Shown here in pieces: positions 7,224 to 37,200 of a stretch of 64,000 bases of DNA. A program made the position numbers and the translations under genes. This DNA comes from Thioalkalivibrio sp. ALJ16. GTDB lineage: Bacteria > Pseudomonadota > Gammaproteobacteria > Ectothiorhodospirales > Ectothiorhodospiraceae. The first letter of the stretch is position 1; every line of letters begins with the position of its first letter. The notes under the pieces are model-generated. The model was not told the origin of the DNA and made no database searches. It was given only the letters and a program-made list of their open reading frames with translations. The stretch spans positions 124,001 through 188,000 of the forward strand of contig NZ_KB898039.1 in NCBI RefSeq assembly GCF_000377345.1. Reading direction: 5' to 3'.

Positions 7224-7300
7224 TGGTCGGAGTGAAAGGATTCGAACCTTCGACCCCTGCCTCCCGAAGGCAGTGCTCTACCAAGCTGAGCTACACTCCG
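7224..7300 (-). tRNA. tRNA-Pro, anticodon CGG
   Basis: Read on the minus strand, 77 nt fold into a full cloverleaf: acceptor stem CGGAGTG/CACTCCG, D arm GCTC...GAGC, anticodon stem CTGCC/GGCAG closing the loop TTCGGGA, and the T loop TTCGAAT. The anticodon CGG reads the proline codon CCG. The 3' CCA is encoded (7226-7224). Its own promoter lies just upstream. Confidence 0.95.
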
Positions 7301-32284: not shown

Positions 32285-32884
32285 ATGCGCCGATTCGTGC
32301 TCGATACCAGTGTCTTCACCAACCCGCATGTGGCCGGGCAGTTCGGCGAGGACCCGGAGGACATCCTGCGGACCTTTCTCACCCTGGCCCGGCACTGTCC
32401 CGCCGAGTTCTACATGCCGCTGTCGGTGTACGAGGAGTTTCGCGGCATGCGCGACCTCGAGGCCCTGGCGGCCGACTTCGAGACCGTTGTGTGGGTGCGC
32501 TCGCCGCGTCGCTTTGCGCTGACCCTGCCGAGCGACATCCTCTACGAGTTCATCGACGAGGTACGCACGCGCATCGATCGCGGCCTGCGCATCGCCGAGG
32601 AACACACGCGGCAGGCGGGGGCGGCCGAGTCGCTGCGCCCGGAGCTGATCACGCAGCTGCGCGAGCGCTTCCGCGAGGCCATGCGCAAGGGCCTGGTGGA
32701 CTCGCGCGAGGATGTCGATGCCGTGCTGCTGGCGATGGAGCTGGATGCCGAACTGGCCAGCGCCGACGAGGGCATGCGCAAGCTGGGCAACCGCATGGGG
32801 ATCAAGCTGGTCACGGCCGACTACCTGCGGCGGGTCATGGAAAACCTCTCCGAGTCGGGCATCCCCGGTCCGGGCGGCGCCTGA
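32285..32884 (+). CDS. PIN-domain RNA ligase partner protein (MJ_0950-like)
   Basis: The 199-residue protein starts at ATG 32285 directly after a perfect AGGAGGT. It has the PIN nuclease layout: MRRFVLDTSVF with the first acidic residue, a helical middle, DSREDVDAVLLAMELDAELASADEGM with further acids, and IKLVTADYLRRV near the end. It matches the family known as RNA ligase partner protein, which co-occurs in genomes with Pab1020-type RNA ligases. The ligase gene is immediately downstream and convergent. Nuclease activity is inferred from the fold only; no substrate is established. Confidence 0.85.
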   Translation: MRRFVLDTSVFTNPHVAGQFGEDPEDILRTFLTLARHCPAEFYMPLSVYEEFRGMRDLEALAADFETVVWVRSPRRFALTLPSDILYEFIDEVRTRIDRGLRIAEEHTRQAGAAESLRPELITQLRERFREAMRKGLVDSREDVDAVLLAMELDAELASADEGMRKLGNRMGIKLVTADYLRRVMENLSESGIPGPGGA

Positions 32885-32910
32885 GGCCGCAAGTCGGGGG
32901 CTTTCCCGTG

Positions 32911-32968
32911 TTCACCTGCGAGCAGGCTCCTGCAGGTTCTACTTTGCAGGAGCCTGCTCGCAGGTGAA
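32911..32968. terminator. Bidirectional hairpin between PIN and RNA ligase genes
   Basis: Two perfect 24-base arms (32911-32934 and 32945-32968) enclose a 10-base loop in the 88-base gap between convergent stop codons. The arms read TTCACCTGCGAGCAGGCTCC onward. There is no long U tract, so it may be a REP-like barrier to convergent transcription as well as a terminator. Confidence 0.65.
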
Positions 32969-32972
32969 GGGC

Positions 32973-34076
32973 TCAGTCGTATTGCCGGTCACCCGCCAGG
33001 GCCGAGGCCAGGGTGCCGGTGATGCGATCGAACAGGCGTTCGAACTCCAGCAGCCAGTAGCCGCTTTCTTCCTGACGCGGGGTGTTCGGCAGGAAACGCA
33101 CGTGGCGCCCGCCGGTTGCCTGCATGTGGTCGATAAAGCGCTGTGCCCCCGCGCGCTCGCGGAAGCGGCAGCGGTAGGTATGGCCGACGCGCCCCTCGCT
33201 CCGGCTCTTGTCCACCGCGGTCGCCAGCCCGGACAGCAGGGCCTCGCCCAGTTCCCGTTCCACGGCGGCACGTTCGCCGGGCGGGTGCTCCGCGAGGAAC
33301 ACCGCCAGGCGGGTCAGGCGATTGGTGAAGTACTCCGGCGGCAGGTCCAGCAGCTGCTCGGAACACACGCGGATGTCGTTGATGCAGGAGCCTCCGGCCA
33401 CGTACTTGGCGCGGTGCTGGCCGTCCGCGGTCTTCAGCACCAGCCCCTCGGCCCCTTCCGCATCCAGTTGCCGAATCAGCTGCCCGAGGGCTGCGCTGTC
33501 CGCGGGCGTGAAGCGTCCGTGCAGGGGTGCCGGGGGTAGCTGGTGGCGCTGCATCAGGGCGAATTTCTCGTCCTGCGGCACGAATCCGGGGCGGCCGAGC
33601 CGCATCAGGTCGAACACGAACAGGCCGACATCCTGTGCGACGCGCGGCGTGGAGCCTTCCAGATAGGGGGTGTCCGGTCCGGCGATCTCCGCGCACAGCA
33701 CCAGGTCGGGCTCGGCGTCGAACACCCCGAGGTCCACGAAATCGGGCACCCGATCGGTGCTGAAGGCGCACACAAATCCTCCCCGACTGAAGGCGTAGAC
33801 CCGGCCCTCCCGGCGCAGGATGCGCACGTTGAAGCCGTCGATCTTCTCCTCCGCCCAGAACGGCTGCTCGAACTGGCGCGGCAAGCCGGCCGCCAGTGAC
33901 TGGATCCGTCCGATGGCCGGGTAGCCGGGCACCACCGCACCGTCCGGCAGCACCACGGAGCCCCGGGGGTAGTGGTTCACCGGCTCCAGCAGCCGGGCGT
34001 ATTCCAGCCCGTCAAAGGTCAGGGCCTCGGCCCGGTGGTTCGCGATCGCGTCCTGCAGCGTGTCCCGGTCGATCAT
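32973..34076 (-). CDS. ATP-dependent RNA ligase, Pab1020/Rnl3 family
   Basis: The 367-residue protein has the nucleotidyltransferase motif I EEKIDGFNVRI (about residues 95-105), whose lysine forms the AMP adduct, followed by RGGFVCAFSTDR, LCAEIAG (motif III region), EGLVLKTADG (motif IV) and KYV (motif V). The long N-terminal region and helical C-terminal dimerisation region fit the archaeal Rnl3 type rather than T4 Rnl1/2 or RtcB. Family members circularise or join 5'-phosphate and 3'-OH RNA ends. TGGAG precedes the ATG. It may be cotranscribed with the two genes upstream; the 31-base gap holds a repeat-element end. Confidence 0.88.
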   Translation of the reverse strand: MIDRDTLQDAIANHRAEALTFDGLEYARLLEPVNHYPRGSVVLPDGAVVPGYPAIGRIQSLAAGLPRQFEQPFWAEEKIDGFNVRILRREGRVYAFSRGGFVCAFSTDRVPDFVDLGVFDAEPDLVLCAEIAGPDTPYLEGSTPRVAQDVGLFVFDLMRLGRPGFVPQDEKFALMQRHQLPPAPLHGRFTPADSAALGQLIRQLDAEGAEGLVLKTADGQHRAKYVAGGSCINDIRVCSEQLLDLPPEYFTNRLTRLAVFLAEHPPGERAAVERELGEALLSGLATAVDKSRSEGRVGHTYRCRFRERAGAQRFIDHMQATGGRHVRFLPNTPRQEESGYWLLEFERLFDRITGTLASALAGDRQYD

Positions 34077-34088
34077 GCGTTCTCCATT

Positions 34089-34125
34089 GCCAACGCGAGT
34101 GTGTACATCAATCCGTGTTTCTCTT
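34089..34125 (-). repeat. Solo end of the MITE-like family within a gene 3' end
   Basis: Read on the minus strand this stretch is AAGAGAAACACGGATTGATG followed by TACACACTCGCGTTGGC, closely matching the left end of element 3. It supplies the last five codons and the TGA stop (34110-34108) of the cotransporter gene and ends a few bases before the ligase ribosome-binding site. No partner end is present nearby. Confidence 0.65.
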
Positions 34126-35778
34126 GCGCAGTCCCAGGATCTGGTCTTTCAGCGCCTCGGTGTGGTGACGCGCCTTGGCCGCCTGGGTGACCAGGCGCCG
34201 CGCCATGCTGATGATCCGCAGCTGGCGTTCCATCTCGGCCATGCTCAGCGAGCCAAAGGTTCCTTCGCGTAGCAGGGCGGCCTTCAGTTCGGCGTAGGTG
34301 GTTTCCACCGTGTCCACGGCCTCGGCGGCGGCCAGATCATGGCCGTTGTCGCCATCGTCCGCCTCCAGGTTGCACAGGTCCAGGGCGCGGATCGCCTGTT
34401 CCTGCCAGGCGCGGCGTTGTTCGGTCACGATCGGGCGCTCCTCGCCACTGGACTGGCGGCGCAGGTCGGCGATGTCGTCGGCCAGTATGGCGACCTCGCG
34501 GTGGTAGCGGGCGATGCGTACGGCCTCGGCGATGCCGTGTCCGACCTGTTCCGGCATCGGGTGGTTGGCTGTGTTTGCCGCGAAGTCGGCGATGGCCTGG
34601 GTCAGCTGTTCTGCGGCCAGGCGCCGGCGGTCGAGGATGCCGGCCGCCGGCGGCGCGGTCTGCAGGGCCTCGCGTGCCATCGAGTGGCCGATGTCGCCCA
34701 GGCGTTCGGTCTCCTGGATCAGCGACTGCAGGGCAAGATCCGGGACCCCGGAACTGCTGCGGTCCAGATACTGGGGCCGGGCGATGTCTTCCTCGATGGT
34801 GCGAAAGCGGCCCTGCAGCCAGCGGATCATCGGCGGGGCGACCGGGACCATCAGCGCCACCCCGAGCAGGTTGAACGCAGTGTGGAACAGCGCCAGCAGC
34901 ACCGCCGGGGCCGGTGCCTCGCCGGTGCTGCCCCAGACCCAGGCGATTGTGGCCAGGAACCAGGGCAGGATCAGTAGCGCGACGATCGCCGTCAGGCCGT
35001 TGAAGATCACATGGGCCGCTGCAACACGCTTGGCGTTCGGGGTCGCGCCGATCACGACCAGCAGCGCCTTGACCGTGGTCCCGAGGTTGGCGCCGATCAC
35101 GGCCGCGGCGGCGGCTTCCAGCGGCACCGCGCCGCTCATGGCGGCGGTCAGGGCCATGGCCATGGAGGCCGAGGAGCTCTGCATCAGCACGGTCAGCAAG
35201 GCCCCGATGCCGACCATGATCAGGAGTCCGACGAAACCGGGACGCGCCAGCGCGCCGAGGTCAAAGGTCGCGCTGAGCCCCTCGAAGGCCTCGCGCAGCA
35301 CGTCGATCCCGAAGAACAGCAGGCCGAAGCCGGCCAGGGCCAGGCCCAGATAGCGCGGCCGCGCGGCCTTCATGAACAGGTAGAGCAGGGCACCGATACC
35401 GATCGTCGGCAGGGCGAAGGTCTCGATACGGATGTTGAAGCCGATCAGCGCGACCAGCCAGCCGGTCATGGTGGTGCCGACGTTGGAGCCGAAGATTACC
35501 CAGACCGACTGACCGAGTGTCAGCAGGCCGGCGTTGGCGAAGCCGATGGTGGCGACCGTGACCGCGCTGGAGGACTGCACCAGCGCGGTCACGCCCATGC
35601 CCGAGGCGAGGGCGCGCGGCCGGGTGCGGGTCCACTGCCCGAGGATGTGCTGCAACGCCTTGCCGCCGGCGGTCTTCAGGCCGTCGGTCAGCAGCGTCAT
35701 GCCGAGCAGGAACAGGCCGAGACCGCCGAGGAAGCCGGCGATCAGGGCGTAGGTGCTGACGGCTTCGGCCTCCGGCAT
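34108..35778 (-). CDS. Na/Pi cotransporter family protein with PhoU-like domain
   Basis: The 556-residue protein has two inverted Na/Pi cotransporter repeats with the signature QSSSA in VTALVQSSSAVTVATIGFANAG and LMQSSSASMAMALTA, about eight to nine membrane helices up to residue 320, and a cytosolic PhoU-like helical domain (about 345-550). It should couple sodium to phosphate movement, or act in phosphate-linked signalling as the family name allows. Its last residues (KRNTD) and stop are encoded by a repeat-element end, so the natural C-terminus may have been replaced. It starts 21 bases after the beta-CASP gene. Confidence 0.88.
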   Translation of the reverse strand: MPEAEAVSTYALIAGFLGGLGLFLLGMTLLTDGLKTAGGKALQHILGQWTRTRPRALASGMGVTALVQSSSAVTVATIGFANAGLLTLGQSVWVIFGSNVGTTMTGWLVALIGFNIRIETFALPTIGIGALLYLFMKAARPRYLGLALAGFGLLFFGIDVLREAFEGLSATFDLGALARPGFVGLLIMVGIGALLTVLMQSSSASMAMALTAAMSGAVPLEAAAAAVIGANLGTTVKALLVVIGATPNAKRVAAAHVIFNGLTAIVALLILPWFLATIAWVWGSTGEAPAPAVLLALFHTAFNLLGVALMVPVAPPMIRWLQGRFRTIEEDIARPQYLDRSSSGVPDLALQSLIQETERLGDIGHSMAREALQTAPPAAGILDRRRLAAEQLTQAIADFAANTANHPMPEQVGHGIAEAVRIARYHREVAILADDIADLRRQSSGEERPIVTEQRRAWQEQAIRALDLCNLEADDGDNGHDLAAAEAVDTVETTYAELKAALLREGTFGSLSMAEMERQLRIISMARRLVTQAAKARHHTEALKDQILGLRKRNTD

Positions 35779-35799
35779 CGCGGCTGTGGGGGTGCGGCG

Positions 35800-37200
35800 T
35801 TACAGGGTGATGGTCTCGCCGAAGGCGGGCACATGCGCCTCGGCCCCCAGCTCGTCGCGCAGGCCTGCGGCCAGGGCCTCGCGCGCCTCTGGCTCGCCGT
35901 GGACTAGATGGAACACCGGCTGGTCCTGAAAGCCGCGTGCCCATTCGAGCAGCTGGCTGCGCCCGGCGTGGGCGGAAAAGCCGCCCAGGGTGTGGATCTT
36001 GGCGTTCACCGCGACCTCGTCGCCCAGCAGCTTGACCTTCTCGGCGCCGTCCACCAGACGCCGCCCGAGTGTACCGGAGGCCTGGAAGCCGACGATCACC
36101 AGATGGGCCTCGCGCCGCCACAGGTTGTACTTCATGTGGTGACGGATGCGCCCGCCATTGCACATGCCGGAGCCGGCGATGATGATCGCGCCGCCGGTGA
36201 TGCGGTTGATCGCCATGGACTCTTCCACCGAGCGGCAGACCTGCAGCCCGGGCAGGTAGGCCGCCGGATCCCCATTTGCGGCTTCATGCAGGCGGTCCAT
36301 GTCCTCCGGGTCCAGCGTCCGCCGCAGGCGGGTGTACAGCTCGGTGACCTTGATGGCCATCGGGCTGTCGAGGAAGACCTTCTGCTGCGGCAGGCGCCCG
36401 GCGTGGTGCAGCATGCTCAGGTGGTAAAGGATCTCCTGGGTGCGGCCGACCGCGAAGGCCGGGATCAGCACGTTGCCGCCGCTCTCGTCGGCCTCGGCCA
36501 GCACCTGCGCGAACTCCTCGACCGTTTCTTCCATCGGGCGGTGGTCGCGGTCGCCGTAGGTGCTTTCCAGCAGCACGTGGTCGGCGTGTTCCGGGCGCGC
36601 GGGCTCGTGCATCAGCACGGCGTCGTCATTGCCGAGATCGCCCGAGAACACCAGGTGCCGGTCACGCCCGCCGGAGGGCACGATCAGATCCACGATCGCG
36701 GAACCGAGGATGTGCCCGGCATCGCGGAAGGTCAGGCCGATCCCGCCCGCGATCTTGCGCGCCTGGCCGTAGGGCACGGCCTCGCACAGCCCGAGGGTGG
36801 TGGCGACATCATCGATGTCGTAGACCGGCTCCACCAGCGGCTTGTCCGCCCGCCGGCGCCACTTGTTCTCCCACTCGATGTCCTTGCTCATCACGAACGC
36901 GGCATCCTCGAGCATGATCTCGAGCAGCTCCTCGGTGCCCGGCGTGCAGTAGATCGGACCGCGGTAGCCGTCGCGCACCAGCTTGGGCAGGAGCCCCGAG
37001 TGGTCGAGGTGGCCGTGCGAGAGCACCACCGCGTCGAGGCTTTCCGCCAGTTCGGCGAGCGGGGCGCGGTTCGCCTCGTCCGCATCGCTGTTGCCCTGAT
37101 ACATGCCGCATTCCAGCAAAATGCGGGCGTCGTCGGTCTCGAGGAGATAACGCGATCCGGTGACCTCGCCGGTCGCCCCCTGAAAGGTCAGTTGTGCCAT
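35800..37200 (-). CDS. Metallo-beta-lactamase/beta-CASP ribonuclease
   Basis: The 466-residue enzyme has the MBL motif LSHGHLDHSGLLPKLV (about residues 58-73), further metal ligands in AGHILGSA and FSGDLG, and the beta-CASP insertion ending with FSAHAGRSQLLEWA and LVHGEPEA. It belongs to the CPSF73-like/YsrA group of RNA-specific nucleases (motif HxHxDH intact). The usual product would be an endo- or 5'-exoribonuclease acting on RNA in the cytosol. It heads a minus-strand run that includes the cotransporter and the RNA ligase, placing an RNA cutting and an RNA joining enzyme in one neighbourhood. Confidence 0.9.
   Translation of the reverse strand: MAQLTFQGATGEVTGSRYLLETDDARILLECGMYQGNSDADEANRAPLAELAESLDAVVLSHGHLDHSGLLPKLVRDGYRGPIYCTPGTEELLEIMLEDAAFVMSKDIEWENKWRRRADKPLVEPVYDIDDVATTLGLCEAVPYGQARKIAGGIGLTFRDAGHILGSAIVDLIVPSGGRDRHLVFSGDLGNDDAVLMHEPARPEHADHVLLESTYGDRDHRPMEETVEEFAQVLAEADESGGNVLIPAFAVGRTQEILYHLSMLHHAGRLPQQKVFLDSPMAIKVTELYTRLRRTLDPEDMDRLHEAANGDPAAYLPGLQVCRSVEESMAINRITGGAIIIAGSGMCNGGRIRHHMKYNLWRREAHLVIVGFQASGTLGRRLVDGAEKVKLLGDEVAVNAKIHTLGGFSAHAGRSQLLEWARGFQDQPVFHLVHGEPEAREALAAGLRDELGAEAHVPAFGETITL

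What the first reader, a model, noticed from the sequence alone, without database searches (positions are those of the whole stretch)
32285..34076. Archaeal-type RNA ligase with its PIN-domain partner, an uncharacterised RNA end-processing pair
Seen: a PIN protein with the acidic residues of a nuclease and a Pab1020/Rnl3-type ligase with an intact KxDG motif, convergent and separated by a 24-bp-arm hairpin. Known: these two families co-occur across genomes, but the partner function and the RNA substrate are not established. Inference: a cut-and-seal or circularisation system, rare in bacteria and probably acquired by transfer.
Basis: partly seen in the sequence, partly recalled or inferred. 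Interest (0 to 1): 0.78.

Follow-up and report, generated by a model that had tools for sequence, protein, structure and literature searches.

The report
Protein-only RNase P with RNA ligase
Two neighbouring genes in a Thioalkalivibrio-type bacterium encode a known protein-only RNA-cutting enzyme (HARP) and a known RNA-joining enzyme (Rnl3); their pairing was published in 2025, but what RNA they act on in bacteria is still unknown.

Summary
At 32285-32884 (+) lies a PIN-family nuclease with intact acidic residues. At 32973-34076 (-) lies a Pab1020-type (Rnl3) RNA ligase with intact KxDG. They converge across a hairpin with 24-bp arms. The PIN protein is not an unknown partner: it is HARP, the minimal protein-only RNase P, 67% identical to the H. 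halophila enzyme of PDB 7OG5. The HARP-Rnl3 link was published in 2025 (PMC12153264), with Thioalkalivibrio named among HARP carriers.

My tests confirm and sharpen it. In 370 gammaproteobacterial genomes, 17 have both, 1 HARP only, 0 ligase only, 352 neither. In 60 of 60 linked bacterial loci the genes are tail-to-tail, in about 26 flanking contexts, with no conserved third gene. The pair is kept whether or not RNA-based RNase P is present; this genome has rnpB and rnpA. Two proposed substrates fit bacteria poorly: fibrillarin is absent from 31 of 31 genomes, and the real tRNA genes here all encode CCA and lack introns. The hairpin is a dispersed REP-like repeat, not part of the system. Most likely HARP cuts and Rnl3 seals or circularises an unidentified structured RNA. 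That step is inferred.

The parts
32285..32884 (+). HARP (homolog of Aquifex RNase P), PIN_5-family minimal protein-only RNase P, 199 aa; 'RNA ligase partner protein' TIGR03875
   Evidence: TIGR03875 217 bits, NF003344 305 bits; PDB 7og5 E=2.7e-79; catalytic D7/D139/D143/D161 and SH-domain R126/R130/R134 conserved in 79-80 of 80 relatives
32973..34076 (-). Rnl3 (Pab1020-type) ATP-dependent RNA ligase, 367 aa, motif I KIDG at residues 78-81, PF18330 C-terminal domain
   Evidence: TIGR01209 275 bits; PDB 3qwu E=8e-89, 2vug (PAB1020) E=8e-65; Lys78 invariant
32911..32968 (.). REP-like inverted repeat (24-bp arms, 10-nt loop) lying between the two convergent stop codons; not a conserved part of the system
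   Evidence: fold, z=-8.7; 9 copies of the arm in the genome; full in L063/L066, half in L064/L065/L068, absent in L067/L069

Best explanation
The pair is HARP plus Rnl3, a two-gene unit kept together in bacteria. The most likely mechanism is sequential. HARP binds a structured RNA with a closed terminal helix and removes its 5' leader, leaving a 5'-phosphate. Another nuclease trims the 3' end to a 3'-OH. Rnl3 adenylates the 5'-phosphate and joins it to the 3'-OH within the same molecule, giving a circular or resealed RNA. In this bacterium the substrate is probably not a housekeeping tRNA and not a C/D-box sRNA. Shown here: family identity, intact catalytic residues, very tight co-occurrence, fixed convergent linkage in bacteria, coexistence with RNA-based RNase P, absence of fibrillarin, and intron-free CCA-encoding tRNA genes. 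Inferred: order of action, circularisation or resealing as outcome, and the nature of the RNA.
For: Identity. Co-occurrence: 17 both, 1 HARP-only, 0 ligase-only, 352 neither in 370 gammaproteobacterial genomes at least 90% complete (Fisher p about 2e-28, not corrected for phylogeny); one of the 17 has only a truncated HARP fragment beside the ligase. A ligase (in G052 only a weak fragment) was found in 77 of 80 HARP genomes: 60 within 1 kb, 17 elsewhere. Within the order both genes are confined to one genus: HARP in 29 of 30 genomes, ligase in 30 of 30, neither in the other 17. Linkage: 60 of 60 linked bacterial loci are tail-to-tail, 53 of them with stops overlapping by 4-54 nt or under 35 bp apart. 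They lie in about 26 contexts with no conserved third gene. Two haloarchaeal plasmid pairs are instead head-to-head, so the link exists in two arrangements. HARP and ligase trees agree (distance correlation 0.91, Mantel 0/2000). Asymmetry: ligase was not found without HARP, while HARP sometimes occurs alone (PMC12153264), which fits HARP supplying the ligase's substrate. Chemistry: RNase P products have 5'-P and 3'-OH ends, which are Rnl3's joining ends (established knowledge). Rnl3 prefers RNAs whose ends meet in a terminal stem and circularises C/D RNAs in Thermococcus (PMC9014305). Not housekeeping tRNA: rnpB and rnpA are present here, and rnpB is above cut-off in 23 of 26 non-Aquificota HARP genomes. 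All real tRNA genes here encode CCA, and one bacterial HARP cuts CCA-bearing pre-tRNAs about 10-fold slower (cited in PMC12153264).
Against: No expression, interaction or product data exist for the bacterial pair. Convergent genes cannot share one operon, so co-expression is not implied. Association could reflect shared selection in extreme habitats. Fisher statistics ignore shared ancestry, and tree agreement is partly expected from common descent. T. kodakarensis lacking the ligase grows normally (PMC9014305), and HARP knockouts in two archaea have no growth defect (PMC12153264). HARP can cut pre-tRNA in vitro, so a tRNA backup role is not excluded.
Confidence: 0.5

Rival explanations
1. RNA repair: under alkaline, saline or hot stress Rnl3 reseals broken structured RNAs, including tRNAs or rRNA nicked by HARP or other nucleases; circles are by-products.
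For: HARP and Rnl3 end chemistries match (established knowledge); carriers come mainly from extreme habitats (PMC12153264); the pair is kept with or without rnpB.
Against: Hydrolytic or RNase A-like breaks leave 2',3'-cyclic phosphate and 5'-OH ends that Rnl3 cannot join (established knowledge); no end-healing gene is conserved next to the pair. In Thermococcus the ligase makes defined circles (PMC9014305).
Confidence: 0.2
2. No direct cooperation: HARP is a backup tRNA 5'-processing enzyme and Rnl3 has a separate job; both are retained by the same habitats and travel together as a mobile pair.
For: HARP has pre-tRNA activity; convergent genes do not form an operon; about 26 flanking contexts suggest a travelling cassette.
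Against: Ligase was never found without HARP in the gammaproteobacterial sample. Unlinked pairs are kept together (17 of the 20 HARP genomes without a neighbouring ligase). Haloarchaea show a different linkage. All real tRNA genes here carry CCA and RNA-based RNase P is present.
Confidence: 0.2
3. Toxin-antitoxin-like pair: HARP, a VapC-like PIN nuclease, is the toxin and the ligase undoes or restrains it.
For: PIN_5/VapC relationship and adjacency (raised in PMC12153264).
Against: HARP occurs alone while ligase alone was not seen, the reverse of what a toxin needing its antidote would give. TA pairs are usually co-directional operons; here 60 of 60 are convergent. Ligase deletion is harmless in T. 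kodakarensis, as PMC12153264 notes.
Confidence: 0.04

Closest known systems
HARP of Halorhodospira halophila (Hhal_2243, PDB 7OG5)
   Same: 67% identical, same length and domain plan (PIN plus spike-helix insertion), same catalytic aspartates; pre-tRNA cleavage reported with Mg2+/Mn2+
   Different: Activity of the protein in this window is untested; PMC12153264 states that several recombinant gammaproteobacterial HARPs (including H. halophila) failed to process pre-tRNA, in conflict with the eLife 2021 report
Rnl3 RNA ligases: Pab1020 (PDB 2VUG) and PDB 3QWU ('DNA ligase')
   Same: Same family over full length, TIGR01209 and PF18330, KxDG motif
   Different: Bacterial host without fibrillarin, hence without the C/D-box substrates known for the archaeal enzyme
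HARP-Rnl3 linkage, Seshadri and Gopalan, mBio 2025 (PMC12153264)
   Same: Same two genes, same neighbourhood, Thioalkalivibrio named among HARP carriers; 665 of 751 HARP genomes carry the ligase and 127 of 164 bacterial ones are co-localised
   Different: That study calls the arrangement 'bidirectional' and proposes C/D-box RNA circularisation; here bacterial pairs are specifically tail-to-tail (60 of 60) and the C/D-box substrate does not fit bacteria

Membership tests
HARP / minimal protein-only RNase P (TIGR03875, PF08745) | Profile match above curated cut-off over the whole protein | tested here: met
   217 bits against cut-off 95.3; PF08745 206 bits against 27
HARP / minimal protein-only RNase P (TIGR03875, PF08745) | Four catalytic aspartates of the PIN active site | tested here: met
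   D7, D139, D143, D161 aligned with A. aeolicus D7/D138/D142 and the SADEG Asp; 79-80 of 80 relatives
HARP / minimal protein-only RNase P (TIGR03875, PF08745) | Spike-helix insertion with conserved arginines needed for pre-tRNA cleavage | tested here: met
   R126, R130, R134 invariant in 80 of 80; R128 is R or K
HARP / minimal protein-only RNase P (TIGR03875, PF08745) | Pre-tRNA 5'-leader cleavage and oligomeric (dodecamer) assembly | not testable with these tools
   Needs biochemistry; shown for H. halophila HARP
Rnl3 / Pab1020-type RNA ligase (TIGR01209) | Nucleotidyltransferase core with KxDG lysine | tested here: met
   KIDG at residues 78-81; Lys in 59 of 59 alignable relatives
Rnl3 / Pab1020-type RNA ligase (TIGR01209) | Rnl3-specific C-terminal domain (PF18330) | tested here: met
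   62 bits against cut-off 25; full-length match to 2VUG and 3QWU
Rnl3 / Pab1020-type RNA ligase (TIGR01209) | ATP-dependent RNA joining or circularisation | not testable with these tools
   Needs biochemistry; known for Pyrococcus and Thermococcus enzymes (PMC9014305)
C/D-box sRNA circularisation system | C/D-box RNP machinery (fibrillarin) in the host | tested here: not met
   No fibrillarin above cut-off in 31 of 31 HARP-bearing bacteria including this genome; four archaeal controls positive
VapBC-like toxin-antitoxin | Co-directional operon with small antitoxin; toxin not stable alone | tested here: not met
   60 of 60 linked bacterial loci convergent; HARP found alone

The most novel reading that the evidence does not exclude
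In bacteria the tail-to-tail HARP-Rnl3 cassette matures a so far unknown class of structured non-coding RNA by leader removal and circularisation, independent of tRNA maturation and of C/D-box RNAs. This would be a dedicated bacterial RNA-circularising pathway.
Probability: 0.3. Interest if true: 0.85.

Novelty: already known. Interest (0 to 1): 0.4.

Why it matters
HARP is an odd RNase P: in Aquificota it is the only one, but elsewhere it sits beside the RNA-based enzyme with no known job. Its near-constant companion is an RNA ligase. If the pair cuts and seals a specific RNA in bacteria, it would explain why HARP persists and reveal a bacterial route to circular RNA. The results narrow the search: housekeeping tRNAs and C/D-box RNAs are poor candidates in this organism, and a culturable genus carries both genes.

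Tried and rejected
1) Intergenic hairpin as part of the system: rejected, it is a dispersed REP-like repeat and polymorphic between strains. 2) A third conserved gene, for example the beta-CASP RNase at 35800-37200: rejected. It is conserved only in the close Thioalkalivibrio group; two further occurrences (L078, L105) are near what chance gives for 80 loci of up to 20 kb. 3) Carriage by phages or viruses: no match in phages or viral contigs. Plasmid matches are all haloarchaeal. 4) tRNA splicing as the ligase's job: RF00005 finds 44 tRNA-like matches, all 61-88 nt long. ARAGORN's one 'intron' call is a spurious second Gly-tcc; an intact Gly-tcc gene lies elsewhere. 5) Replacement of RNA-based RNase P: rejected for this genome, which has rnpB (321 bits) and rnpA. 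6) Base composition as a sign of recent transfer: none (68-69% GC against 67.7% in the window). 7) Rfam scan of the window for a neighbouring RNA substrate: only one tRNA, at 7227-7300. 9) No newer paper in the library establishing the bacterial substrate.

Full report
WHAT IS THERE. The window lies in a 2.76-Mb draft genome (G000, contig C3). The nearest named loci are Thioalkalivibrio strains (97-98% identical HARP). An ORF at 32285-32884 (+) encodes 199 aa. An ORF at 32973-34076 (-) encodes 367 aa. The first matches TIGR03875 'RNA ligase partner protein' and PF08745. The second matches TIGR01209, PF09414 and PF18330 'Ligase Pab1020 C-terminal region'. By sequence the first is 67% identical to the H. 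halophila protein of PDB 7OG5, 'RNA-free ribonuclease P' (E=2.7e-79), with all seven strong PDB hits being HARPs. The second matches 3QWU (E=8e-89) and P. abyssi PAB1020 2VUG (E=8e-65).

ACTIVE SITES. D7, D139, D143 and D161 of the window protein fall on the catalytic aspartates reported for A. aeolicus HARP (PMC8266387) and are present in 79-80 of 80 relatives (the single gap is a truncated contig). Spike-helix arginines 126, 130 and 134 are invariant. The ligase lysine of KxDG is present in 59 of 59 alignable relatives. The Asp is replaced by Asn in four (L113, L115, L120, L124).

HAIRPIN. The arms are perfect over 24 bp and the fold is far from chance (z about -8). The same 24-mer occurs nine times in the genome with up to 3 mismatches, against none for the reversed pattern, and a second inverted pair sits on contig C10. 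In sister strains the spacer holds a full, a half or no copy. It is a REP-like element, not a conserved component, and it lacks the T-run of an intrinsic terminator.

CO-OCCURRENCE. In the host order, HARP is in 29 of 30 genomes of the window's genus and the ligase in 30 of 30; neither is in the 17 genomes of the other four genera. The one HARP-less genome is 66% complete, and its ligase lies 60 bases from the contig end where HARP would follow. In a spread of 370 gammaproteobacterial genomes (364 of them at least 90% complete and at most 5% contaminated), 17 have both, 1 HARP only, 0 ligase only and 352 neither (Fisher p about 2e-28, not corrected for phylogeny). One of the 17 (G249) has only a truncated HARP fragment directly beside the ligase. 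Two sub-threshold ligase matches of about 20 bits were not counted. In a named sample of 80 HARP loci, 60 have the ligase within 1 kb. Of the other 20, 17 have a ligase elsewhere in the genome (one only a weak C-terminal fragment, G052) and 3 have none. This independently agrees with the published 89% (PMC12153264).

ARRANGEMENT. In all 60 linked bacterial loci the ligase is downstream of HARP on the opposite strand: tail-to-tail. Stops overlap by 4 to 54 nt in 25 loci and lie less than 35 bp apart in 28 more. Two haloarchaeal plasmid pairs are head-to-head, with 98-121 bp between starts. Three haloarchaeal plasmids carry HARP alone within the stretch read. The pairs sit in about 26 flanking contexts, some set apart only by short contigs, and no third gene recurs across clades except generic ones. 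HARP and ligase trees are congruent (r=0.91, Mantel 0/2000). The bacterial unit is therefore these two genes alone, moving or being inherited together without an operon.

RELATION TO RNase P. This genome has a full rnpB (321 bits) and rnpA. Among 38 HARP genomes scanned, rnpB is above cut-off in 23 of 26 non-Aquificota (the three exceptions are MAGs) and in 0 of 12 Aquificota-type genomes, one of which bears an Acidobacteria title. The ligase is kept in both situations, so its link to HARP does not depend on HARP being the only RNase P.

SUBSTRATE. The published idea of C/D-box RNA circularisation (PMC12153264; archaeal data in PMC9014305) does not carry over to bacteria: no fibrillarin above cut-off in 31 of 31 HARP-bearing bacterial genomes, while four archaeal controls are positive. 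Housekeeping tRNA is also a poor candidate here. Of 44 ARAGORN carry a genomic CCA; the exception is a degenerate Gln copy, and one CCA-bearing call is the spurious 'intron' Gly. No tRNA intron was found. A bacterial HARP is reported to cut CCA-bearing pre-tRNAs about tenfold slower (cited in PMC12153264). What remains is a structured RNA whose ends meet in a terminal helix: that is the product geometry of an RNase P-type cut and the preference of archaeal Rnl3 (PMC9014305). This step is inference.

MECHANISM. RNase P-type cleavage leaves a 5'-phosphate, and Rnl3 joins 5'-phosphate to 3'-OH (established knowledge), so HARP's product can feed the ligase without end-healing enzymes. The asymmetry (ligase not seen without HARP, HARP sometimes alone) fits HARP acting first and argues against HARP being a toxin that needs the ligase as antidote. 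I put about 0.5 on sequential cut-and-seal, 0.2 on RNA repair, 0.2 on no direct cooperation, and the rest on the cap-removal and toxin-antitoxin ideas.

STATUS. Membership in HARP and in Rnl3 is met on every sequence feature tested; activities were not testable. The pair, its co-localisation and its presence in this genus are already published. What is added here: the strictly tail-to-tail arrangement in bacteria against head-to-head in haloarchaea, independence from rnpB, absence of fibrillarin, the CCA/intron survey, and the removal of the hairpin from the picture.

CAVEATS. Loci within a clade are not independent. Many genomes are MAGs, so absences are weak. The named scan finds only HARPs close to the bacterial query. 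Tree agreement has no species-tree control. Literature is limited to the open library.

Noticed in passing
window 32911-32968; G000:C10:34545-34608 and five other places: REP-like 24-bp repeat, in two places as an inverted pair, dispersed in the genome and polymorphic between sister strains; no associated transposase was looked for.
   Followed up: partly
window 34108-37200 (-): The ligase is last in a tight minus-strand run: beta-CASP/MBL RNA nuclease (35800-37200, 362 bits to the Cas14 model and 297 to aCPSF1, both under cut-off), Na/Pi symporter (34108-35778), ligase. Conserved only in close Thioalkalivibrio strains.
   Followed up: partly
L113, L115, L120, L124: Rnl3 ligases with KxNG instead of KxDG in motif I, in Methylothermaceae and a gammaproteobacterial MAG, each still beside an intact HARP.
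   Followed up: no
L164, L165, L166 (haloarchaeal plasmids): All three HARP-only haloarchaeal plasmids have a HalOD1 output-domain gene near HARP.
   Followed up: no
G000:C27:4951-5022: Degenerate tRNA-Gln copy (30.5 bits) next to an intact tRNA-Gln.
   Followed up: no
literature: PMC8266387 against PMC12153264: H. halophila HARP is reported active on pre-tRNA in one paper and listed among inactive recombinant HARPs in another.
   Followed up: no
L137 (record titled Acidobacteria bacterium J001): HARP, ligase and lack of rnpB all place this contig with Aquificota; the bin is probably misnamed.
   Followed up: no
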